Below, one piece after another: positions 42,938 to 53,189 of a stretch of DNA of 53,189 nucleotides. A program made the position numbers and the translations under genes. Each line of letters opens with the position of its first letter. Positions within the stretch are counted from its first letter, which is position 1. The DNA comes from a virus, in the IMG/VR virus record IMGVR_UViG_3300013099_000025, positions 1-53,189 of that record, one strand, 5' to 3'. Below the pieces are notes generated by a model, which was given only the letters and a program-made list of their open reading frames with translations, did not search any database and was not told the origin of the DNA.

Positions 42938-43789
42938 CTATATTAGTGAATTATAGTTGAATCCATTCTCAACACCTTTGCAATTAATTGCTATTGCTTC
43001 ATGTGTATGAATAGATTCTTCATGTTTACATTTAACAATCCAATCTACAATACCATCCATTTTCTCTAATTGATATGATATCAATCGGATTGCATCTTCA
43101 ACAAATAACGGATTTTCGGATGCAACTCTAGCTAATTCTTGTTCATCGATTCGTTTTATAATCGGATAGGGTTGTGTAACTAATATTTTATTCATACCTT
43201 CGATAATATCTTCCAACCATATCTGTTTTTTATTTATCAAATCCATCGATATTCTTATTTTTGTAAATGATCTTTGTGCATGTGGGAATCCCATATTCTT
43301 TAATTTAGTCATCAAATGTTTGGCTAATTCAGCTGAACATGGACAATATGATGAATATTGGATTTCTACTGATTGAATAAATTCATATTTCCCATCTACC
43401 CTAGACGCTTCAAATGAACAAGGATAGAATAACGGAAATTCGTTATCGCTGATTGGAGATTTTTTAGAGACAGGTAAATCAAAATAAAATTTGATATAAC
43501 TATCTCTTTCCCCTACAGCACTACTGATTTCATCCAAACATAATTTAATCAATGACCAATTAAGACCTTTATTGAGATAAGGTTTTATTGACAATAACAA
43601 ACGTGACATTGAAATACCTTTTATATTGTCACGTAGATTGGTAGCTATAAATACATTGGCTACCAATTGTGATGTTTCACCATTTCGCAATAATAATGAA
43701 AAAGGCAGTTTTATAGTTTCCACGCCTACTATATTAATTGCGATTCTATATTCCGGTGATGTTTCTTGTATATCTGGTAATAATGTCAT
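42938..43789 (-). CDS. folE2: GTP cyclohydrolase FolE2 (MptA/FolE2 family)
   Basis: 283 residues, the typical FolE2 length. SSYCPCSAELAKHLMTKL holds the zinc Cys motif (CPCSAELA), followed by GFPHAQRSFTKI (HxQRS), NPLFVEDAIR, and DWIVKCKHEESIHTHEAIAI with the HxH pair at the end. FolE2 converts GTP to 7,8-dihydroneopterin triphosphate, the first step for folate and for queuosine/7-deazaguanine. Phages usually use it to make modified DNA bases; the other pathway enzymes are not in this window. Its stop overlaps none, but its start (ATG at 43789) overlaps the beta gene's stop by four bases, so the two are coupled. The active site looks complete. Confidence 0.9.
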   Translation of the reverse strand: MTLLPDIQETSPEYRIAINIVGVETIKLPFSLLLRNGETSQLVANVFIATNLRDNIKGISMSRLLLSIKPYLNKGLNWSLIKLCLDEISSAVGERDSYIKFYFDLPVSKKSPISDNEFPLFYPCSFEASRVDGKYEFIQSVEIQYSSYCPCSAELAKHLMTKLKNMGFPHAQRSFTKIRISMDLINKKQIWLEDIIEGMNKILVTQPYPIIKRIDEQELARVASENPLFVEDAIRLISYQLEKMDGIVDWIVKCKHEESIHTHEAIAINCKGVENGFNYNSLI

Positions 43790-46700
43790 TTCAAATCATC
43801 TCCAATATCAATCATCATGACATAATTATATGCCTTTAATAATTTCAATGTTTCTGATTCCATATCTGGATTTTCTTCTAAATCAAGATATTCTGTTCCA
43901 ATAGCTTTCTTTAGAAAATTATTTTTACCATCAACACAATCAGATTTTATCGTATAAAATTCTTGTTGATTAATTGGCATATCGTTTGAAACTAAACAAA
44001 TACTTTCCATTTCTCCACACTTCTGTCCACCGTTATTAACCTTACCAGAAACAGGTTGCATGGTTTTTTGTGAAGTTATTCCAATACTTCGATAAGCTAA
44101 TTTCTTTTCAGATCTATGAATCAATTTCATGATATACATATATCCAGTCGCAATCTCATTTATAATATAATCATTTAAAATGGGATCGAAAATTTTATCT
44201 TCGAAATCAGTTTTTGTGTATTTCATTATCTTATGTAAATCTTGATTATTTATAGAATCAAATGGTGGTTGAACAAGATATATGTTATCAATATATTGTT
44301 CATCGATAATATCAGGGAGTAATTGTTTTACATGACTAATGATCCATTTTTCTGGTGTCTTATCAGTCAGATAAATATAATCTATGAAATATTTTTTAAT
44401 ATCATGTTGATCTTTACCATCAACAAGCATTTTCTTCATATTGTTCTTCATATCGATCAAAGATTTAGTCAATGATATTTCAAACAATTGTCCAGTATTC
44501 ATTCGAGAAATAACACCAACTGGATTCAAACAAACATCTACATGTGATCCATCTGGTAATTGTGGCATGACTTCATGTTTTTTAATTGCGGTAATAACAC
44601 CTTTATTTCCATGTCTATTTGCCAGTTTATCTCCAATCTGAATCGGACTTTCATATATCCCATTTATATCTATTCTCACACCTTTGATCAATTCATCTTT
44701 ATTCTTATATTTACCGGGATAACTATGTATATCAAGACTATGTTCAGCTATAATTCTCTTACCATCTTTTTTATCTGTCGTATCTGCAATAACTTGAATC
44801 AATTTGTTATCTTTTTTGATCTGATCATCAATAACTTTATTCATCCATGTGTCATATTCTTTAATATTGGTATACCATTCATTTGCATATACTGTGATAT
44901 CTTCAATCATCAAATCATATTTTGCTGTTCTTTCAAGACTATCTTCAAAAATATTGTAAGCATTATCCTTTATTGCACCAAATAAATACATTTCTTTGAT
45001 GATTGCGTAAATGTCTCCTTTCTTAATAGATGTTCCAATTGGATGAAGAGGTGTATATACATCTGTTTTTCCACCATTCAGATCCAATAAAACTTTTGTC
45101 GGACTAATATTGAATGACATATCCACATAATGTTGTGATGTCAAACAACCATCCTTCACCAATCTATCAGATATTACAATACCATCCTCATGATTATATC
45201 CATAGTATGACATGAAAGCAATTTTGAAATTTTGACCAATTGTTATATTTTCATTCTTACAAAATACACTATATGCCAACACTTGATCTTTTGAAAATTT
45301 ATCTCCTTTCTTTAAATTAGTTATCATCACATCCATATTTTCAGATGTAATTGGTCTGACCCCAATATCGATTACATCAATATTACCTCGATCATATCCA
45401 ATTATAAGATGTTTATTTGCCACAAATAATACTTCACCATCGCCTTTTGCTTTGTGTAAGAAATTACTATATTTAGTAAAACTTCTTTCCGCACCAGAAC
45501 AAATTAACGGTATATGAAAATCCTTTAAAAGAATTGATTGTTTCATCTGACTAGAAGCCATTTGAAGGCGTGTCTGGTCAGTATGTTCAAGAAATGGAAT
45601 CATCGTTATTGGAATCGATGTTATTGACTTTGATTCTGCTGTATCAATGAACTGAAATTTATCATCAAATTTAGCCATTGGATTTATATTTTGAACCACA
45701 CCACAATTTTCTCTATCTGGTGTATCAACGGGACAAATCTTTCCTGTCATTGATCTATTTAAATCTCTCAATTTAGTCGGAACAGATTTCTTTTTAAATC
45801 CATTAGGACCAGTTAAAGATGTTTGAGCAATCTGAGCAATCTGTTCAATTGGATTAATACTAAAATCAAATTGAACAATCTCAGATGTATTGCTATCTCC
45901 AAGTATTTTAGTTTTAGAAATATTAAATTTTGGTTTAGGATCGTTTCTACAATTAACACATAACTTGAAAACGTTTGTTATGAAATACTGTAAAACCGCA
46001 TATTCGAAACATCTGATTCTTTTATTTGCATAATTAAGATCATCATACCAAATATCATTCACTACAATATTCAACAAACAATCAACTATATTATCTTCAT
46101 CAATAAATCGTTTGGTGATAACATCGACATCTAAAACATGCTTCATGGAAAACATGTAATCATTGCCTTTAGCTACTGGATTACGATCAGAAAAATATGA
46201 ACCAATGTTATGAATGAAATCATCTTGTTCTATTTTTTCATCAGAATAATTCAACAAATCCAATAATAATAATTGGTGTAATGATAAATTTTTTGGATCT
46301 GATTCAATCAATTCCCTTTCATTGATATCTGTTAAAAATTTATCTTTAATTTCATCGGGACCGTAAAATGCATTCAACACAATCGCAAAAGGAATATTTC
46401 GTGAAAAAGCAGATATCATTACGAACGAATCAATTTTATTCTTCTTCGTATATTTCCAAAATAAAGATACTCTACCAACATTTGTTTGAATTCGTATCTC
46501 TTTTTTCTTCTTTGTATCAAAAGTTAAAATGGGAATATCAAATAATTGATATTTCGGAATCTTCTTTCTTTTATTTATGGAAAACCATTGTCCATTTATC
46601 AATTTTGGAATCTGCATTGATAGATCAATAATTTTACCCCCTTTTGATAATTTGATTACGATATTTTCTTTCACCGTATTTATCAAATTATGACCACTAT

Positions 46701-46860
46701 ATCTTGTATCTATTTTTTCAAATCTATCAATTACAAAATCACATAAAACAGGGACTTTTAATATTTCCTCAATATCATCCATTAATTGATCGTAATTTTC
46801 TTGTCGTATAGTAAATATATTTCTTTCCGGTAAATGTAATTCTGGATTATCTGGATACAT
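43786..46860 (-). CDS. RNA polymerase beta subunit (phage-encoded)
   Basis: 1024 residues in one piece. Signature blocks in order: LRDLNRSMTGKICPVDTP (about 370, equal to the RDVxPxxxGRxCPxxTPEGP region), GYNHEDGIVISDRL (about 555, active-site lobe), GDKLANRHGNKGVITAIKK (about 750, the universal GDKxxxRHGxKG clamp/active-site motif), LNPVGVISRMNTGQLFEISL (about 785), and QPVSGKVNNGGQKCGEME (about 945). It is shorter than bacterial beta (about 1340) and lacks flap-tip regions, as in other phage RNA polymerases. With the fractured beta' it would make a phage-specific enzyme, probably reading the repeated late promoter motif. No alpha or omega subunit is seen. Confidence 0.95.
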   Translation of the reverse strand: MYPDNPELHLPERNIFTIRQENYDQLMDDIEEILKVPVLCDFVIDRFEKIDTRYSGHNLINTVKENIVIKLSKGGKIIDLSMQIPKLINGQWFSINKRKKIPKYQLFDIPILTFDTKKKKEIRIQTNVGRVSLFWKYTKKNKIDSFVMISAFSRNIPFAIVLNAFYGPDEIKDKFLTDINERELIESDPKNLSLHQLLLLDLLNYSDEKIEQDDFIHNIGSYFSDRNPVAKGNDYMFSMKHVLDVDVITKRFIDEDNIVDCLLNIVVNDIWYDDLNYANKRIRCFEYAVLQYFITNVFKLCVNCRNDPKPKFNISKTKILGDSNTSEIVQFDFSINPIEQIAQIAQTSLTGPNGFKKKSVPTKLRDLNRSMTGKICPVDTPDRENCGVVQNINPMAKFDDKFQFIDTAESKSITSIPITMIPFLEHTDQTRLQMASSQMKQSILLKDFHIPLICSGAERSFTKYSNFLHKAKGDGEVLFVANKHLIIGYDRGNIDVIDIGVRPITSENMDVMITNLKKGDKFSKDQVLAYSVFCKNENITIGQNFKIAFMSYYGYNHEDGIVISDRLVKDGCLTSQHYVDMSFNISPTKVLLDLNGGKTDVYTPLHPIGTSIKKGDIYAIIKEMYLFGAIKDNAYNIFEDSLERTAKYDLMIEDITVYANEWYTNIKEYDTWMNKVIDDQIKKDNKLIQVIADTTDKKDGKRIIAEHSLDIHSYPGKYKNKDELIKGVRIDINGIYESPIQIGDKLANRHGNKGVITAIKKHEVMPQLPDGSHVDVCLNPVGVISRMNTGQLFEISLTKSLIDMKNNMKKMLVDGKDQHDIKKYFIDYIYLTDKTPEKWIISHVKQLLPDIIDEQYIDNIYLVQPPFDSINNQDLHKIMKYTKTDFEDKIFDPILNDYIINEIATGYMYIMKLIHRSEKKLAYRSIGITSQKTMQPVSGKVNNGGQKCGEMESICLVSNDMPINQQEFYTIKSDCVDGKNNFLKKAIGTEYLDLEENPDMESETLKLLKAYNYVMMIDIGDDLK

Positions 46861-46881
46861 ACACTCATTCCTTTCTAATTA

Positions 46882-48567
46882 TTAAATATTTTTGTATGAT
46901 ACACCACACATAATTTTATCAATGACCCCACCAGAATATAGACCAGGCCTCAATAATCCATTTATCAATTCACGCTTTGTATTTGAGAATGAAATTCCCA
47001 TTATCCAACTTTCTAATGATGGAATATTTACAATAGATTTCATCTGATATGGCTTGTTTTCCCTATCTTCTAATGTTCTCCATTTATGTCCATCGTCAAA
47101 CCACATCAATTGTGCAACAAGACATTCGAAATGAACATGCATAAAGAATCTATCTTTTGAATAAATCTCAAATAAATCTGTAACTAATTGATCAGCATTA
47201 CTATTTTTTTCGTATTTATGAACCATTTTAGATATCAATGTCAATGCTCCAACAATATCTTTCTGTTCCATCTCACCGGAATCATTGATGAAATCATCGT
47301 CGATTGAAGCTACTCCTGATTTATGAAATGTCTGTAATACCATTTGGGTATTCGATTCACCTAATGCTTGAGACGCAATCGATCCAACAAATCTACTATT
47401 ATTTAGATGACGATATAATTCTCCATAACATCTCTTACAAACTTTCTCAGATTTACAATACATCACACTTCTGATAAAAATCTTTTTATTGACAAGTGTT
47501 TTTAAATTAGATGGTTTAACCATGAATAATGAATCGTGATCATCTGGTGAAAATGTTATCCATCGACCAATTATAGATTGTGCTTTTTTCTCATCTGGAA
47601 TAAATATAGAAAGATAATCTGTTGTTCCGCAATCATCGTTATCATAATCTAACATCAGATTAGAACAAGCGAATGCGAATTTTCTGAATAAATACCCTGA
47701 GAAAGATGTTTTTATTGCAACATCCAATAATCCTTTTCTACAACCAAATGATGATGTAAAAAATTCTTCTGGTGTCAATCCATCTACAAATGAATTTTTA
47801 ATTGGTGTGGTTAAAATATGTCCTTTAAAATTTGATATGAATCCCCGTGATAGAATCAATTGTCTTGCTTGATCCCAACTTCCTCTTGCACCGGATTCGA
47901 TCATATCTGTATATTGGAAATTTTCACGTAAAAATTTAGAGACTCTTGGACCATTGATTTCTTTGATTTGATCTGTCACTTTATCCAAAGAATAAATCTC
48001 ATCACGCAATTTAGTTTGTGATAACATACCTTTCAATGAAATAGTATGACCAATAACAGTTGCATATACAAAACCAACAGTTTTTATATTGTCTAAAATA
48101 TCTCTGATTTTTCCATTATATTTATTGAAAGCGTCGTAAATATATTGTCGGATAACATCAGATGTCACTGGTTTATTAATCAATTGAAAATCATCTGGAA
48201 AACATTCATTTATTATTTTCATTCCAGCTGTTATTTCTTCATTCTTATATTTTACTTTTTCGCCAAATTTACCATCTGTTATAGTGCTTAACATAAATAA
48301 TCCCAATACCATTTCCTGACTTGGTGTGGTAGTGATTTTCATATCAGTTGGATTTAACAGACAATTTGTTGATAATGCTTGTGTTTTAGCTTCTTCTTGA
48401 GATTCTGGTGTCACTGGAAGATATACAGCCATCGAATCTTGAACAAACACTCCATCGTGTGTAGCGAAAGTAAAATAATCTTCGATTGTAAAATCATAAG
48501 CCGTTGTTTTTTCTGGATCATGTGTTATTTCTATTTCAGATATCGGAATTAGAATTCTATCATTCAT
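46882..48567 (-). CDS. RNA polymerase beta' C-terminal part with C-intein
   Basis: 561 residues. The first 44 are an intein C-half (AYDFTIEDYFTFATHDGVFVQD, blocks F and G); from Ser45 (SMAVYLPVTPESQEEAKTQ) the beta' sequence resumes right after NADFDGD. Later landmarks: SGARGSWDQARQLILSRGF (about 235), GCRKGLLDVAIKTSFSGYLFRKF (about 280, trigger loop), CKSEKVCKRCYGEL (about 375, zinc), and GSIASQALGESNTQMVLQTFHKSGVAS (bridge to C-terminal). The ATG is preceded by AAAAAGGGG. Its start (MNDRIL) belongs to the intein half and would be removed by splicing. The extein part is about 517 residues. Without splicing this piece lacks the catalytic Asp motif. Confidence 0.93.
   Translation of the reverse strand: MNDRILIPISEIEITHDPEKTTAYDFTIEDYFTFATHDGVFVQDSMAVYLPVTPESQEEAKTQALSTNCLLNPTDMKITTTPSQEMVLGLFMLSTITDGKFGEKVKYKNEEITAGMKIINECFPDDFQLINKPVTSDVIRQYIYDAFNKYNGKIRDILDNIKTVGFVYATVIGHTISLKGMLSQTKLRDEIYSLDKVTDQIKEINGPRVSKFLRENFQYTDMIESGARGSWDQARQLILSRGFISNFKGHILTTPIKNSFVDGLTPEEFFTSSFGCRKGLLDVAIKTSFSGYLFRKFAFACSNLMLDYDNDDCGTTDYLSIFIPDEKKAQSIIGRWITFSPDDHDSLFMVKPSNLKTLVNKKIFIRSVMYCKSEKVCKRCYGELYRHLNNSRFVGSIASQALGESNTQMVLQTFHKSGVASIDDDFINDSGEMEQKDIVGALTLISKMVHKYEKNSNADQLVTDLFEIYSKDRFFMHVHFECLVAQLMWFDDGHKWRTLEDRENKPYQMKSIVNIPSLESWIMGISFSNTKRELINGLLRPGLYSGGVIDKIMCGVSYKNI
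48436..48567 (-). other. C-terminal half of a split intein (IntC, 44 residues)
   Basis: Residues 1-44 of the protein ending at 46882. The phrase TAYDFTIEDYFTFATHDG matches block F (usually VYDxxVxxxHxFxxxNGxxxxN), and VFVQD is the block G end. The +1 residue is Ser. The block F His is replaced by Phe, and the last two residues are Gln-Asp rather than His-Asn. The half partners with the 130-residue N-half at 49794-50183. Confidence 0.85.
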
Positions 48568-48600
48568 CTATGTGACCCCTTTTTAGGAAATATTTTGTAC

Positions 48601-48642
48601 GTTTCTCTATGATGAAAAACTATGTTTCCATCATAGAGAAAC
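48601..48642 (-). terminator. Terminator after the endonuclease-like gene
   Basis: GTTTCTCTATGATG, a 14-base loop and CATCATAGAGAAAC, perfect 14-bp stem. On the minus strand it lies directly after the endonuclease stop (48649) and before the ribosome site of the C-terminal beta' piece, so transcripts from the N-terminal piece may end here unless it is weak or bypassed. Confidence 0.7.
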
Positions 48643-48648
48643 AAATTT

Positions 48649-49776
48649 TTAAAAATATTTAATTCGTATAAATTTACAGTTTAAAACATTCTCAATTTTT
48701 TTCTGTCGATGATCATCTTTTTCTTTAATTCTTTTATGATGTTTTTCATCAATTTCGATTACGATGTTTCTTTGTGCGTCATAACCATCGACAAGATAAT
48801 TGGTATTTGGAACTTTGAATTCTCCACCATTTTCAGCATGTTGGAAATTATACCCCCATGAATCATTGAATTGTTGAATTAGATTACATGCTTTTTTGTT
48901 ATACATCAATGAATTGCTTTTACTATAATTCGAATTAGCAATATGTTCATTTATGGTTTGTCTCATTTGTTCTTTCTGACACTCTCGTTGTGCTGGATTC
49001 TCCACTCCAAATTGTTCCATATTTGTTTCTTTAATTTTTTCTTTTACTTCTTCTGCTTGAAATGGATTTTCGACACCATAATGTTCTTTTGTTGTTTCTA
49101 TCTTTTTAGCTTTTACTTCTGGTATTTTAGAAACATTATCCACACCATGCTTCATTCTAACACCGGCTTTTTGTGCTTGCTTTCCTTCTTCTGTCTGCCA
49201 CGGAAAATCAGTTCCATACCTTTGTTGTGATGTTTCGATTTTCTTTTGTTGAATCGTGTCCAATTGAGAAATATTATCAACACCATAAATTTCTTTTACT
49301 GTTTCTTGCATCGTATCGATATAGGCAGCTTTTTCAGATCCATAATTTTTGATCGCTGTTGCCTTTTTCTTTTGAATAAATTCTTCTGACGATTGTTTCT
49401 TTGCCAGAATTTTTAGACTACAAGATCGACAACAAGTATCTGAAAAATAAATCAATTTCTCTTTTTTCTTATATGAAAGAATTGCGTATTTCTCTTTACA
49501 TACTTTACATTTTTCAAGAGAATCCAATGTCAGATAATTATTATTCAGTGCCCATAATCTGACATTTACTGTTAATTGCTGTTTCTTGGCATTCGGATAT
49601 GCTTCATCTAAATGACACGTTGCAAGCATAAGTTTTTCTTTTCTATATGCACAACCACCAGCTATGAACCAACGATAATTCTTTTCATTTGCAAATTTTG
49701 GATTCTTGTTCAGTGTTTCGATTTGATTCACACACCATTCACGAGCTTTAACAATTTCTTCTTCTGAATGTAACAT
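48649..49776 (-). CDS. Free-standing homing endonuclease-like protein (Vsr/EDxHD type)
   Basis: 375 residues. The start (EIVKAREWCVNQIETLNKNPKFANEKNYRWFIAGGCAYRKEKL) leads to a Cys pair (CKVCKEK ... CCRSC) that may bind zinc. Then come five imperfect repeats of the 'YGVENPFQ...EKxKET' kind (about 140-265; 'YGVDNISQ', 'YGTDFPWQ', 'HGVDNVSK', 'YGVENPFQ', 'FGVENPAQ'), typical DNA-binding modules in phage homing endonucleases. The C-terminus (NYLVDGYDAQRNIVIEIDEKHHKRIKEKDDHRQKKIENVLNCKFIRI) is the Vsr-like EDxHD nuclease core. It sits between the two beta' pieces and has its own ribosome site (AGGAG) and terminator, as expected for an enzyme that spreads the inserted block. Confidence 0.85.
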   Translation of the reverse strand: MLHSEEEIVKAREWCVNQIETLNKNPKFANEKNYRWFIAGGCAYRKEKLMLATCHLDEAYPNAKKQQLTVNVRLWALNNNYLTLDSLEKCKVCKEKYAILSYKKKEKLIYFSDTCCRSCSLKILAKKQSSEEFIQKKKATAIKNYGSEKAAYIDTMQETVKEIYGVDNISQLDTIQQKKIETSQQRYGTDFPWQTEEGKQAQKAGVRMKHGVDNVSKIPEVKAKKIETTKEHYGVENPFQAEEVKEKIKETNMEQFGVENPAQRECQKEQMRQTINEHIANSNYSKSNSLMYNKKACNLIQQFNDSWGYNFQHAENGGEFKVPNTNYLVDGYDAQRNIVIEIDEKHHKRIKEKDDHRQKKIENVLNCKFIRIKYF

Positions 49777-49790
49777 TTTTAAAATATCTC

Positions 49791-51404
49791 CTAATATTTT
49801 TGTTGAACTAAATACCTCCCTTCTGGATTTTCCAACAATTCTTCAGGAGATATTTTTATATTCTTTTGTTCGTTCTCATCCCATACGATTAAACTATGAT
49901 CATCAGATACCCAAAAATCTTCAAATCGATTCTGTGGGTCATGTATGGAAAACATTTTCAAATTACGATGTTCAGAATAATCCAAAATCTTCTTTTCAGC
50001 TATTGTTCCATCGTCTAAACTTATTGCTTTGATGTGCATTTCTTCAGTTGGTTTGTAATGACTTACATTTTCTTTTTCTTTCTCTGGAATGTGTTTAAAC
50101 ATATCAGTATCTTTCAAATCTGCAATATGTTTTACTATACTTTCTTTCTTTTCATTTGTCAAGTGTATAGTACATAATGCTGAGTCCCCGTCAAAATCTG
50201 CGTTAAATCCACGACAAACCATCGGGTGAATACATATAACATCAATTGGCTCAACTTTTATTTTGAATGCGACTAAACTTAATTTATGTAAACTAGGTTG
50301 TCTATTGAGTAAACAGACATCATCACCAATAATCTCTTCACATATTTTCAATAGATGCGGATCATTGTGAAATTGACATTCTTCGACGCATTCCAATGCT
50401 CTATGGATTGATTTGAAATGACCATCATCTATTAATTTTTTAGCAATTTTTATCTTATATAATTCAAGAATCATTCGATATGGTAAAATACATTCATCTA
50501 ATTTAATTGTGGGAGATGGTGCAATCACCGCACGACCTGAAAAATCTATTCGTTTTCCTAAGATATTGCCTCTGATTAATCCTTCTTTCTTCGATATATT
50601 ATCGATAATATAATCAAATAAATCATCGACATTTCTTTGGAATTGACTATAGTATTCTTGATAGATTTTCATATGCCGTGTTATATCAATATCTCCAGCA
50701 GCCATAATTTCTTTTCTGACTAGAATCTGATAATAATATTGATTTAATTGATCGACTGAATTTGTAGTTGGATTTATTTGAGAAATGGGTCGCATTGAAG
50801 GAGGGATAACAATCACTTCGTATAGAAATAAATGTTCATCCACATTCTTCAATAACATCTTAAATTGTTCATTTTCTGGATCAATGATCATATAAGTTTT
50901 GATGGTATTGACGATTAATTTCTCAACAGCTTCATGCATCTGCCAATAATCATACTTCAAATCACTGATTTTTTCATCTTCTTCAAGTGTTTTCAAAATA
51001 AATTCATCATTATATTCGTATAAAATATTTCTATGTGATTTCATTAATTTTGTCACATCATCAAATAATAATTTTTCAGATGAAGGTAATATTTTCTTAA
51101 CAAGGGAAAGATATGTTCTATTAAGCAATGGTATTGGTAAAGTTATTTTAGCAAATTGCCTCCTTCGTTTGAGACTGTTTGTAATTTCTAAATCATCACA
51201 AAATTTTCCACCGCATTTAGCAATTTGACCTTCGGAATGTTTTCCATGATATATTCCACATCGACAAGTATAATTATTTTCTAAACCGAATATATGTTCT
51301 GAAAATAATCCATATCTATGATATTTCTTCTTCTTCTCAAAATAACCAGAGGTAGTTATTTCTGGTAAATCTTTCGCAAATTCTCTATTTAATAATTTAG
51401 GCAT
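49791..51404 (-). CDS. RNA polymerase beta' N-terminal part with N-intein
   Basis: 537 residues. Residues 1-407 are beta': LPEITTSGYFEKKKKYHRYGLFSEHIFG, CRCGIYHGKHSEGQIAKCGGKFC (zinc), GNILGKRIDFSGRAVIAPSPTIKLDEC (about 293), LLNRQPSLHKLSLVAF (about 366) and CRGFNADFDGD (about 397-407), the last holding the three catalytic Asp residues. At Ser408 an intein begins (SALCTIHLTNEKKES); block B appears as FWVSDDHSLIVWD; the protein ends 130 residues later. Both the bridge to the trigger loop and the rest of the subunit are missing here. It starts at ATG with GGAGTATCATAATAA upstream and leads the polymerase operon. Confidence 0.93.
   Translation of the reverse strand: MPKLLNREFAKDLPEITTSGYFEKKKKYHRYGLFSEHIFGLENNYTCRCGIYHGKHSEGQIAKCGGKFCDDLEITNSLKRRRQFAKITLPIPLLNRTYLSLVKKILPSSEKLLFDDVTKLMKSHRNILYEYNDEFILKTLEEDEKISDLKYDYWQMHEAVEKLIVNTIKTYMIIDPENEQFKMLLKNVDEHLFLYEVIVIPPSMRPISQINPTTNSVDQLNQYYYQILVRKEIMAAGDIDITRHMKIYQEYYSQFQRNVDDLFDYIIDNISKKEGLIRGNILGKRIDFSGRAVIAPSPTIKLDECILPYRMILELYKIKIAKKLIDDGHFKSIHRALECVEECQFHNDPHLLKICEEIIGDDVCLLNRQPSLHKLSLVAFKIKVEPIDVICIHPMVCRGFNADFDGDSALCTIHLTNEKKESIVKHIADLKDTDMFKHIPEKEKENVSHYKPTEEMHIKAISLDDGTIAEKKILDYSEHRNLKMFSIHDPQNRFEDFWVSDDHSLIVWDENEQKNIKISPEELLENPEGRYLVQQKY
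49794..50183 (-). other. N-terminal half of a split intein (IntN, 130 residues)
   Basis: Begins at Ser408 of the upstream protein, just after NADFDGD. The second beta region reads MHIKAISLDDGTIAEKKILDYSEHRNLKMFSI, and FWVSDDHSLIV is block B with a SDDH in place of the usual TxxH. Length to block B is about 96 residues, longer than typical (about 70), so it may hold an extra loop. It stops at TAA (49791-49793), leaving no room for an internal endonuclease; that role is taken by the separate downstream gene. Confidence 0.82.
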
Positions 51405-51480
51405 TTATTATGATACTCCACTATATAAATATTTAAGAAAAAAATTATACATTTCAGCTATATAACTATGTTGTGATTAA

Positions 51481-51522
51481 TTTTAAAAACAGCCCATGAT
51501 TTAACATGGACTGTTTTTAAAA
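51481..51522 (-). terminator. Terminator after the 226-residue gene
   Basis: On the minus strand AAAAACAGTCCATG, a 6-base loop, CATGGGCTGTTTTT. The single mismatch is a G-U pair in minus-strand RNA but C-A in plus-strand RNA, so it is built for leftward transcripts. It separates the E1-like operon from the polymerase operon, which must start from a promoter in 51405-51480 (AT-rich, no repeat motif recognised). Confidence 0.85.
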
Positions 51523-51525
51523 TTT

Positions 51526-52206
51526 TTATACCATTCTTAGCTGTTTAGCAACATTCATCATACCATAAATAAAATCCCGTTCAGGGACATTCATAATAGA
51601 TGATAATGGTTTTTTGAAATTATTTAACATATACCCCATGTTAAATCTTTTCTTTACTTTTTTACGAGGAATCATAATATCATTTTTTTGATCATATAAC
51701 ATATCAACATCACCAAAATCAACAGAAACTTTCGATAAATCAAACCAATATCCCTCATCGAAATCCCAATATGATAAATCATTGATTAATTTATTCAATG
51801 ATATATTGATTGGATCTTGTGCATATGATTTATACGGATTCTTGCAGAATTCATATAATTCAAATTGTTTTCCTTTGTATGTATATTCTAATTCATTCGT
51901 GATCATTGTAAGTGTTTCTGTAGAGAAATGATCAAATTTATTTATAAGTTTTGCATTTGGATGGTGTGCATCTACCAAATAAATATTTGTGATTTCTGCA
52001 CGTTTTTCTTTTGTATTGCGTGGTATGTATTTAATTAATAGTTTATGAACAATACAGAATTCGTCATAAATTTTATCGATATTCACATCGAATCCGAAAC
52101 ATTTTAAATATCTTGGATTGATCACACAATCTACTAAAAGCATTGGTTTTTCAGAATATACCATTCTATGGTTCAAAATTGTAGGAATTGGAATGCTGTC
52201 TAACAT
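51526..52206 (-). CDS. Protein of unknown function paired with the E1-like enzyme
   Basis: 226 residues from the ATG at 52206, with AGGAGGAG nine bases upstream; it overlaps the stop of the E1-like gene by one base (TGATG), strong coupling. MLDSIPIPTILNHRMVYSEKPMLLVDCVINPRYLKCFGFDVNIDKIYDEF has a few beta strands, then an acidic/aromatic middle (LSYWDFDEGYWFDLSKVSVDFGDVDMLYD), and a basic end (RKKVKKRFNMGYMLNNFKKPL). I cannot place it in a family; it has no obvious catalytic Cys in an E2- or JAB-like context. It is a natural partner or substrate candidate for the E1-like enzyme. Confidence 0.6.
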   Translation of the reverse strand: MLDSIPIPTILNHRMVYSEKPMLLVDCVINPRYLKCFGFDVNIDKIYDEFCIVHKLLIKYIPRNTKEKRAEITNIYLVDAHHPNAKLINKFDHFSTETLTMITNELEYTYKGKQFELYEFCKNPYKSYAQDPINISLNKLINDLSYWDFDEGYWFDLSKVSVDFGDVDMLYDQKNDIMIPRKKVKKRFNMGYMLNNFKKPLSSIMNVPERDFIYGMMNVAKQLRMV

Positions 52207-53018
52207 CAAGCTCCTCCTATCTGATTTATAATATTTAGTTGTAAAGTGTCTCCTCTTATTGATGGCACCGTATATACGGCAGGAAAATTATCTATCTCCT
52301 GTCTGATTGTTGTCACTATATTGTTTACAATTTCTGAAATATTATTATCATATATTTGGAATGATTCATTTTTCAGATTATACATCCCATCTAAGATATC
52401 AACATTGACATGTTTGATATTATTGTTTTCACATGTGATTAATTTTTCAATATAATCATGGGAGACATTTTGTGATGGATGTAAATTTTCAATCATCCCG
52501 ATTTGATTTATTGAAATAGCTGTCCTGTCTGTTATATATCCTACAATTCTTATTTTTTCATTACAAAACATATTTACAAATCTAACAATTAATGATTTGA
52601 TAAATTGATTATTGATATAACTAACATATTCTCCTTCAACTTCAAATCTAAATGAAATAGTTTTTCTGAAATCAATAATCAATTTATCCTTATTTATGAA
52701 TAATTTAATAGCATCGAATGTTTGTCTATCCTCGAACGTATCTCTACAATCAAAAATAGTTGAACATTGATTTATAATTTTTTGGATTTTTGGTGATAAT
52801 TTATTTGATTCAATATATTCACATATCCCTGTGACATTAGAATATTGCGATTCACATGAATTTACTTTCTTTCTTCCAACATATTTCACATTATATTGAA
52901 TGTTATTTTTATTTACAACATCGCCGTCGATCACAACAAATTGTTCATGAGGTAATTTTCTTTGTAATGAATCTAACAAATTTTTTCCTAATGAGCCTAC
53001 TCCTATTATTCCAATCAT
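52206..53018 (-). CDS. E1/ThiF-like adenylating enzyme
   Basis: 270 residues. MIGIIGVGSLGKNLLDSLQRKLPHEQFVVIDGDVVNKNNIQYNVKYVGRKKVNSCES matches the ThiF/MoeB/E1 Rossmann fold: GxGSxG near residue 6, then VVIDGDVVxxxNxxxN, then GRKKV. TIFDCRDTFEDRQTFDAI (about 95-110) equals the 'VxDCxDxxxxR' turn. No zinc CxxC pairs are present, unlike ThiF. The protein ends GGA, only one residue after a Gly-Gly. E1-like enzymes activate the C-terminus of ubiquitin-like or ThiS-like proteins. A phage homologue next to an unknown coupled gene is notable, but the partner is not identified. Confidence 0.68.
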   Translation of the reverse strand: MIGIIGVGSLGKNLLDSLQRKLPHEQFVVIDGDVVNKNNIQYNVKYVGRKKVNSCESQYSNVTGICEYIESNKLSPKIQKIINQCSTIFDCRDTFEDRQTFDAIKLFINKDKLIIDFRKTISFRFEVEGEYVSYINNQFIKSLIVRFVNMFCNEKIRIVGYITDRTAISINQIGMIENLHPSQNVSHDYIEKLITCENNNIKHVNVDILDGMYNLKNESFQIYDNNISEIVNNIVTTIRQEIDNFPAVYTVPSIRGDTLQLNIINQIGGA

Positions 53019-53027
53019 TATATATCC

Positions 53028-53189
53028 TTATAATAGATTTTTCAATATTTTGGCATATGCCAATAGAACCTCCTTGGCTTTACTTGCCATTATTTTTTTA
53101 CTTTGTTTTCTTGTCTGTTTTTCTGTAGTAATATTTATAATACAAATATCCACATAATATTCTTCATCATTAAATGGATTCAACGATAA
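53028..53189 (-). CDS. C-terminal end of a gene cut by the window edge
   Basis: 53 codons are open from the edge: LSLNPFNDEEYYVDICIINI followed by a basic helical tail (TEKQTRKQSKKIMASKAKEVLLAYAKILKNLL) and TAA at 53028-53030. It stops 9 bases before the ATG of the E1-like gene, and AAGG for that gene follows its stop, so it probably precedes it on the same transcript. The beta-strand-then-helix end cannot be assigned. Confidence 0.6.
   Translation of the reverse strand, partial: LSLNPFNDEEYYVDICIINITTEKQTRKQSKKIMASKAKEVLLAYAKILKNLL

What the first reader, a model, noticed from the sequence alone, without database searches (positions are those of the whole stretch)
48649..49776. Endonuclease gene embedded between the two beta' pieces with its own terminator
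A repeat-rich protein with a Vsr/EDxHD-like C-terminus sits exactly at the break, the place an in-frame homing endonuclease would occupy in a normal intein. It has its own ribosome site and a 14-bp hairpin. This suggests the endonuclease moved out of the intein and became independent while still promoting spread into uninterrupted polymerase genes. The hairpin also raises the question of how transcription reaches the C-terminal piece and beta.
Basis: partly seen in the sequence, partly recalled or inferred. Interest (0 to 1): 0.68.

Follow-up and report, generated by a model that had tools for sequence, protein, structure and literature searches.

The report
Split-intein homing element in phage RpoC
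A virus gene for the catalytic subunit of RNA polymerase is cut in two by a self-joining protein element (a split intein) with a separate DNA-cutting enzyme gene in the gap, a known kind of selfish element at a new address where whole, split, nuclease-free and empty versions of the same site can be compared.

Summary
A 375-aa gene (48649-49776, minus strand) lies between two pieces of a phage RNA polymerase beta' gene. The pieces end in intein halves (IntN 130 aa, IntC 44 aa). Removing exactly IntN + gene + IntC (1,748 bp) gives a 924-codon beta' collinear with an uninterrupted relative, L001 (80-82% aa identity). The break falls between the third catalytic Asp of NADFDGD and a Ser; L001 has Ala there. 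The protein is DUF7487-type repeats plus a C-terminal domain modelled with the Vsr / I-Bth0305I fold, all family-invariant residues intact. At least 10 of 38 other clusters with this domain also sit between split-intein halves, in terminase and other phage genes. This is the "fractured gene" arrangement (Dassa 2009), new in beta'.

Two parts of the reading fail. The hairpin is real but lacks a T-tract, and similar hairpins recur in this phage's intergenic gaps, so it is no terminator. "Moved out of the intein" is disfavoured: homologous contiguous inteins at this same site carry an unrelated LAGLIDADG domain where the window's split lies, and another phage has the split intein with no nuclease. 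LAGLIDADG loss plus capture of a Vsr-like gene fits better. Splicing and cleavage are inferred, not shown.

The parts
50184..51404 (-). beta' N-extein (407 aa), ending in the catalytic loop NADFDGD
   Evidence: RNA_pol_Rpb1_2 8.8e-27, rpoC TIGR02386 1.8e-48; 80% identical to L001; dN/dS 0.10
49791..50183 (-). IntN: N-terminal intein half (130 aa + stop), Ser1 start, block-B-like WVSDDHSLIV
   Evidence: junction mapped on L001; a profile of the contiguous inteins L094+L096 finds it at 9e-06 against a best shuffle of 0.34 among 1000; 56% identical over 50 aa to the IntN tail of phage contig G002
48649..49776 (-). free-standing homing endonuclease gene, 375 aa, own ribosome site AGGAG
   Evidence: PHROG homing endonuclease families 9.5e-16 and 3.3e-14
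48934..49386 (-). DUF7487-type repeat array (23-residue YGVxNP-like units), putative DNA-binding arm
   Evidence: Pfam DUF7487 6.7e-25; YG units at residues 145, 164, 187, 210, 233; DNA binding is inferred
48652..48909 (-). C-terminal Vsr/EDxHD-like nuclease domain (residues 290-375): HAENGGEF, VDGYD, EIDEKHH, D..R
   Evidence: all family-invariant residues present in a 40-row alignment; model pLDDT mostly 74-95; VIA-align Z 7.3 to I-Bth0305I and 7.0 to Vsr
48601..48642 (.). stem-loop between the endonuclease gene and beta' C; not an intrinsic terminator by sequence
48436..48567 (-). IntC: C-terminal intein half (44 aa), ends FVQD with Asp instead of Asn
   Evidence: profile of L094+L096 C halves 1.4e-08 against a best shuffle of 0.19; 64% identical to G002 IntC, which also ends FVQD
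46882..48435 (-). beta' C-extein (517 aa) starting Ser+1 (SMAVYLPV)
   Evidence: RNA_pol_Rpb1_5 4.8e-25, rpoC TIGR02386 1.8e-63; 82% identical to L001; dN/dS 0.10
43786..46860 (-). RNA polymerase beta subunit, next gene downstream (context)
   Evidence: RNA_pol_Rpb2_6 3.9e-46

Best explanation
The 1,748 bp between 50183 and 48436 are a bipartite selfish element in a phage RNA polymerase beta' gene: a split intein with a free-standing homing endonuclease gene between its halves. Beta' N-IntN and IntC-beta' C are translated separately. IntN and IntC then associate and trans-splice, with Ser1 as first nucleophile, Ser+1 as acceptor and a C-terminal Asp as the cleavage residue, giving a 924-aa beta' with the NADFDGD-SMAVYLP active-site loop restored. 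The endonuclease (repeat arm plus Vsr/EDxHD-like domain) would cut uninterrupted beta' alleles near the NADFDGD codons in mixed infection, and repair would copy the whole element in. The anatomy, the empty site, the homology of the intein halves and the nuclease fold are shown computationally. Splicing, the cleavage site and homing are inferred.
For: Exact join of the two exteins equals the uninterrupted relative in length and frame. Intein halves are homologous to contiguous inteins at the identical site in L094 and L096: N half 9e-06, C half 1.4e-08, best shuffles 0.34 and 0.19. Those inteins match the Intein_splicing and LAGLIDADG_3 models (8.4e-05 and 2.5e-09; 4.7e-05 and 1.3e-05; the intein score is below the Pfam cut-off, the LAGLIDADG score above it), and their LAGLIDADG lies where the window is split. 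A terminal Asp is shared by all four inteins of this kind seen complete at that end, so it is a family trait rather than decay. The +1 residue is Ser in the window and Thr in G002, L094 and L096, but Ala in uninterrupted L001. Nuclease domain intact with Vsr/I-Bth0305I-like fold. Same nuclease domain between split-intein halves in terminase and other genes. Intein identity 56-64% to G002 against extein identity 33%, with the nearest relative (83%) empty: horizontal movement.
Against: No splicing, cleavage or expression data. The joined intein alone reaches Pfam Intein_splicing only at E 0.77 over the whole library. Block-F His and the penultimate His are replaced (DYFTF, VQD), so splicing could be slow or need the partner protein. 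The cut site is not known; free-standing phage endonucleases can cut far from their own gene (PMC2988022). In G002 the halves persist without a nuclease, so the nuclease is not required for the split state. The higher identity of intein than extein rests on short stretches (44 and 50 aa). The fold matches are moderate (Z about 7).
Confidence: 0.85

Rival explanations
1. The endonuclease was once an in-frame domain of this intein and became independent when the reading frame broke.
For: It sits exactly where the in-frame endonuclease lies in homologous contiguous inteins.
Against: The in-frame endonucleases at this site are LAGLIDADG, an unrelated fold. The Vsr-like domain is found elsewhere as separate genes at gene borders and inside other split inteins.
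Confidence: 0.1
2. The two beta' pieces work without splicing, as non-covalent subunits, and the tails are inert remnants.
For: Some phage RNA polymerases have naturally divided beta' subunits (PMC12350094 mentions a beta' N-terminal subunit gene). The intein has atypical blocks F and G.
Against: The break lies inside the metal-binding NADFDGD loop, so 130- and 44-aa tails would sit in the active site. Intein features are conserved over distant homologues. Both exteins show dN/dS 0.10.
Confidence: 0.07
3. The endonuclease is an independent free-standing gene that landed between the pieces and targets another site; it does not mobilise the intein.
For: Many relatives with this domain lie at ordinary gene borders. 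G002 keeps the split intein without a nuclease. A sibling phage has a different endonuclease gene between beta' and beta.
Against: At least 10 of 38 other non-redundant clusters sit precisely between split-intein halves, in genes of different kinds.
Confidence: 0.2
4. A group I or II intron interrupts beta' and the endonuclease is intron-encoded.
For: Group I and II introns with EDxHD/Vsr-like endonucleases invade phage virion RNAP beta' genes (PMC12350094).
Against: No Rfam family reaches its gathering score in 43500-53189. The tails read as intein halves in frame with both exteins, with their own stop and start codons.
Confidence: 0.03

Closest known systems
Fractured genes: split inteins with a free-standing EDxHD/Vsr-like endonuclease gene between the halves (Dassa et al. 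2009, Nucleic Acids Res 37:2560; seen here through its title and citations, contents from memory)
   Same: gene order N half-IntN / endonuclease / IntC-C half; Vsr-like nuclease; phage host genes
   Different: host gene is RNA polymerase beta' at the catalytic Asp loop; intein starts with Ser and ends in Asp; contiguous LAGLIDADG versions exist at the same site
Pseudomonas phage MIJ3 split DNA polymerase B intein (PMC6892783)
   Same: split intein with a separate endonuclease gene between the halves in a jumbo phage gene
   Different: HNH endonuclease and PolB gene
I-Bth0305I (EDxHD homing endonuclease, PDB 3r3p)
   Same: Vsr-type catalytic fold with an extended DNA-binding arm
   Different: intron-encoded (from memory); DUF7487-type repeats and the HAENGGEF motif are those of another branch
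EDxHD/Vsr-like endonucleases of group I and II introns in phage virion RNAP beta' genes (PMC12350094)
   Same: same class of nuclease invading phage beta' genes
   Different: RNA introns with CapR-like arms, not a split intein
LAGLIDADG inteins at NADFDGD|C in viral contigs L094 and L096
   Same: same insertion site, homologous splicing domain, C-terminal Asp
   Different: contiguous, in-frame LAGLIDADG endonuclease, Cys1

Membership tests
Fractured gene (split intein + free-standing endonuclease) | host gene broken into two ORFs whose join equals an uninterrupted homologue | tested here: met
   2,775 nt join, 924 aa, collinear with L001
Fractured gene (split intein + free-standing endonuclease) | intein N and C halves at the break | tested here: met
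   profile of contiguous inteins finds both halves, 9e-06 and 1.4e-08, shuffles no better than 0.19
Fractured gene (split intein + free-standing endonuclease) | separate endonuclease ORF between the halves, own start | tested here: met
   48649-49776 with AGGAG ribosome site
Fractured gene (split intein + free-standing endonuclease) | protein trans-splicing | not testable with these tools
   needs co-expression
EDxHD/Vsr homing endonuclease | Vsr-type nuclease fold | tested here: met
   Z 7.3 over 73 residues to 3r3p and 7.0 to 1cw0 on a domain with pLDDT mostly 74-95; moderate scores
EDxHD/Vsr homing endonuclease | catalytic E, D, H, D residues | tested here: inconclusive
   family-invariant E (GGE), D (VDGYD), E.DE..H and D..R are present, but their one-to-one equivalence to the residues of I-Bth0305I was not established; the helix-1 E/D common in the family is Q in the window
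EDxHD/Vsr homing endonuclease | site-specific DNA cleavage and homing | not testable with these tools
   no biochemistry
Intein (HINT splicing domain) | nucleophile at position 1 and at +1 | tested here: met
   Ser1 and Ser+1; uninterrupted L001 has Ala at +1
Intein (HINT splicing domain) | block G His-Asn end | tested here: not met
   Gln-Asp; terminal Asp is conserved in the three homologues, so it is a variant of the motif; inteins ending in Asp are known (from memory)
Intein (HINT splicing domain) | match to the Pfam Intein_splicing model | tested here: inconclusive
   E 0.77 spanning both halves in the window; homologues L094 and L096 8.4e-05 and 4.7e-05, below the curated cut-off
Intrinsic (Rho-independent) terminator | GC-rich stem followed by a T run on the coding strand | tested here: not met
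   AT-rich stem, tail GTACAAAATATT

The most novel reading that the evidence does not exclude
One insertion site, the catalytic loop of phage RNA polymerase beta', shows an endonuclease-replacement series for one intein family: empty (L001, L095), contiguous with LAGLIDADG (L094, L096), split with an unrelated Vsr-like gene (window), and split with no nuclease (G002). Fractured genes would then arise by capture of a free-standing endonuclease gene in the gap left by loss of the in-frame one, and the split intein would move between different RNA polymerase lineages.
Probability: 0.5. Interest if true: 0.65.

Novelty: new member of a known kind. Interest (0 to 1): 0.5.

Why it matters
It puts a known but little-studied arrangement into the most conserved loop of a multisubunit RNA polymerase, where the phage polymerase should be inactive until two proteins splice. 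Because the same site exists empty, whole, split with a nuclease and split without one, how split inteins with outside endonucleases arise becomes testable. The Asp-ending split intein is also a candidate tool.

Tried and rejected
Relatives of the endonuclease by single-sequence pattern search: none; an alignment with one distant relative opened the family. Sequence search of the Protein Data Bank with the endonuclease, its domain profile and the inteins gave no credible relatives. Foldseek alone gave no match under 1e-3; the VIA-align second look gave the Vsr and I-Bth0305I matches, tied with several other restriction-endonuclease-like folds. Search of phage records for this intein family found none. 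Intron rejected: no Rfam match. Terminator rejected. Recent foreign origin by base composition gave nothing: GC and GC3 of the endonuclease equal those of beta'. The tree of C-exteins has long branches and was used only for the window-L001 pairing. Search of G001-G005 for the nuclease domain gave nothing, without a positive control in that call. Literature search found no report of a split intein in a phage beta' gene, but the library is open-access only and the 2009 paper itself is not held.

Full report
WHAT IS THERE. The window is an IMG/VR virus record of 53,189 bases from a contractile-tailed phage, with tail sheath, baseplate and terminase genes. On the minus strand run beta' N (51404-49791), the endonuclease ORF (49776-48649), beta' C (48567-46882) and beta (46860-43786). 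Gaps are 14, 81 and 21 bases, and each ORF has a plausible ribosome site.

THE BREAK. Beta' N ends ...NADFDGD followed by 130 residues; beta' C begins with 44 residues followed by SMAVYLPV. A relative, L001 (102-kb viral contig), has a single 924-aa beta' reading NADFDGD-AMAVYLPV. Removing 1,748 bp from the window gives 2,775 nt, exactly the length of the L001 gene, with 79% nucleotide identity. The window exteins are 80% and 82% identical to L001, and both show dN/dS of 0.10, with the caveat that much of this divergence may predate the insertion.

THE TAILS ARE INTEIN HALVES. The Pfam intein model gives only E 0.77 for the joined tails. A search for viral DNA encoding NADFDGD-Cys found contiguous inteins at the same site in two viral contigs, L094 and L096, and an apparent one in a bacterial MAG contig, L099. 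L094 and L096 match the intein-splicing and LAGLIDADG models. A profile of their splicing regions finds the window's N tail at 9e-06 and C tail at 1.4e-08 among 1,000 shuffles, whose best values are 0.34 and 0.19. The ends are near-identical in pattern: FVQD|S (window), FVQD|T (L096), IVWD|T (L094). The window's split lies where the LAGLIDADG domain is in L094 and L096.

A SECOND SPLIT COPY WITHOUT A NUCLEASE. A search for FVQD-[S/T..]-[M/V]-AV found L100, the start of a 150-kb contig, G002. It begins inside an IntN tail, has a 54-aa ORF that matches no family, then IntC-beta' C with FVQD|TMAVYLP. G002 also has a second, uninterrupted beta' orthologous in gene order to the window's. Window and G002 inteins are 64% (IntC) and 56% (IntN tail) identical, while the flanking exteins are 33% identical, and the window's 83% relative L001 is empty. 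Inteins usually diverge faster than their hosts (general knowledge), so this points to horizontal movement. The stretches are short.

THE ENDONUCLEASE. Residues 131-281 are DUF7487-type repeats with mostly 23-residue spacing. Residues 290-375 form a compact domain (block pLDDT mostly 74-95) whose structural matches include I-Bth0305I (Z 7.3, rmsd 2.6, 73 residues) and Vsr (Z 7.0). An alignment-based search returned 78 viral loci with this domain, forming 38 clusters apart from the window. All invariant residues are kept in the window. At least ten clusters sit between split-intein halves: large terminase (AAQEC|, very short IntN) and a gene with a KTDGQ motif are clear, and a DNA polymerase B case (L082/L083) shows only the N half. 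Other clusters lie at ordinary gene borders. The closest relatives of the window's protein are those of the KTDGQ gene.

HAIRPIN. 48601-48642 folds to -27 kcal/mol, z -7.1. There is no T-tract on the coding strand, and no terminator is called. Six of nine perfect stem-loops of 12 bp or more in the window fall in the 6.6% that is intergenic, so the hairpin belongs to the phage's style rather than to the element. How beta' C and beta are transcribed needs RNA data, but nothing in the sequence demands a stop there.

HOW IT MOST LIKELY WORKS. Shown: anatomy, empty site, homology of intein halves, nuclease fold and intact motif, presence of the same module in other split genes. Inferred: trans-splicing restoring NADFDGD-SMAVYLP, cutting of uninterrupted beta' near this site, copying of the whole element. 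Origin: loss of an in-frame LAGLIDADG and capture of a free-standing Vsr-like gene fits the series at this site better than an endonuclease that moved out. This resembles the collaborative-homing idea for introns (PMC2988022).

COMPARISON. The arrangement is that of fractured genes (Dassa 2009, not held in the library; cited in PMC6892783 and PMC12350094). MIJ3 has an HNH version in PolB (PMC6892783). Related nucleases invade phage virion beta' genes inside introns (PMC12350094). Earlier RNA polymerase inteins are archaeal largest-subunit and eukaryotic second-largest-subunit cases, the latter at conserved sites (PMC1635734). I found no report of a split intein in phage beta' at this loop, within an open-access library. 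Verdict: new member of a known kind, with an informative set of alleles at one site.

Noticed in passing
L094:8821-12741: The beta' of viral contig L094 seems to carry a second contiguous intein in the trigger-loop region (..ITQLAMK|C ... NHN|TFHTGGVSS).
   Followed up: no
L095 (reverse strand 6471-5608): A sibling phage with uninterrupted beta' (NADFDGD|CIAVYVP) has a NUMOD3/HNH-like endonuclease gene between beta' and beta, in the same gene order as the window.
   Followed up: partly
L109:1709-3272: In phage contig G002 a second endonuclease-like ORF (CESNFEKEVFEYLEDNN) follows beta' C, and the beta' C-terminus seems to continue after it, so beta' may be broken twice. G002 has two multisubunit RNA polymerase sets.
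   Followed up: partly
window 9630, 12523, 14201, 34344, 38396, 42092, 48601, 51479: Strong stem-loops recur in intergenic gaps of this phage, mostly without T-tracts; possible processing or stability elements.
   Followed up: partly
L009:1-7130: Campylobacter phage CP21 has its tail sheath gene in several ORFs with putative homing endonuclease genes nearby.
   Followed up: no
L021-L023, L025, L031-L033, L035-L038, L049: A split intein interrupts a KTDGQ motif (nucleotidyltransferase/ligase-like) in many viral contigs, with the nearest relatives of the window's endonuclease between the halves.
   Followed up: partly
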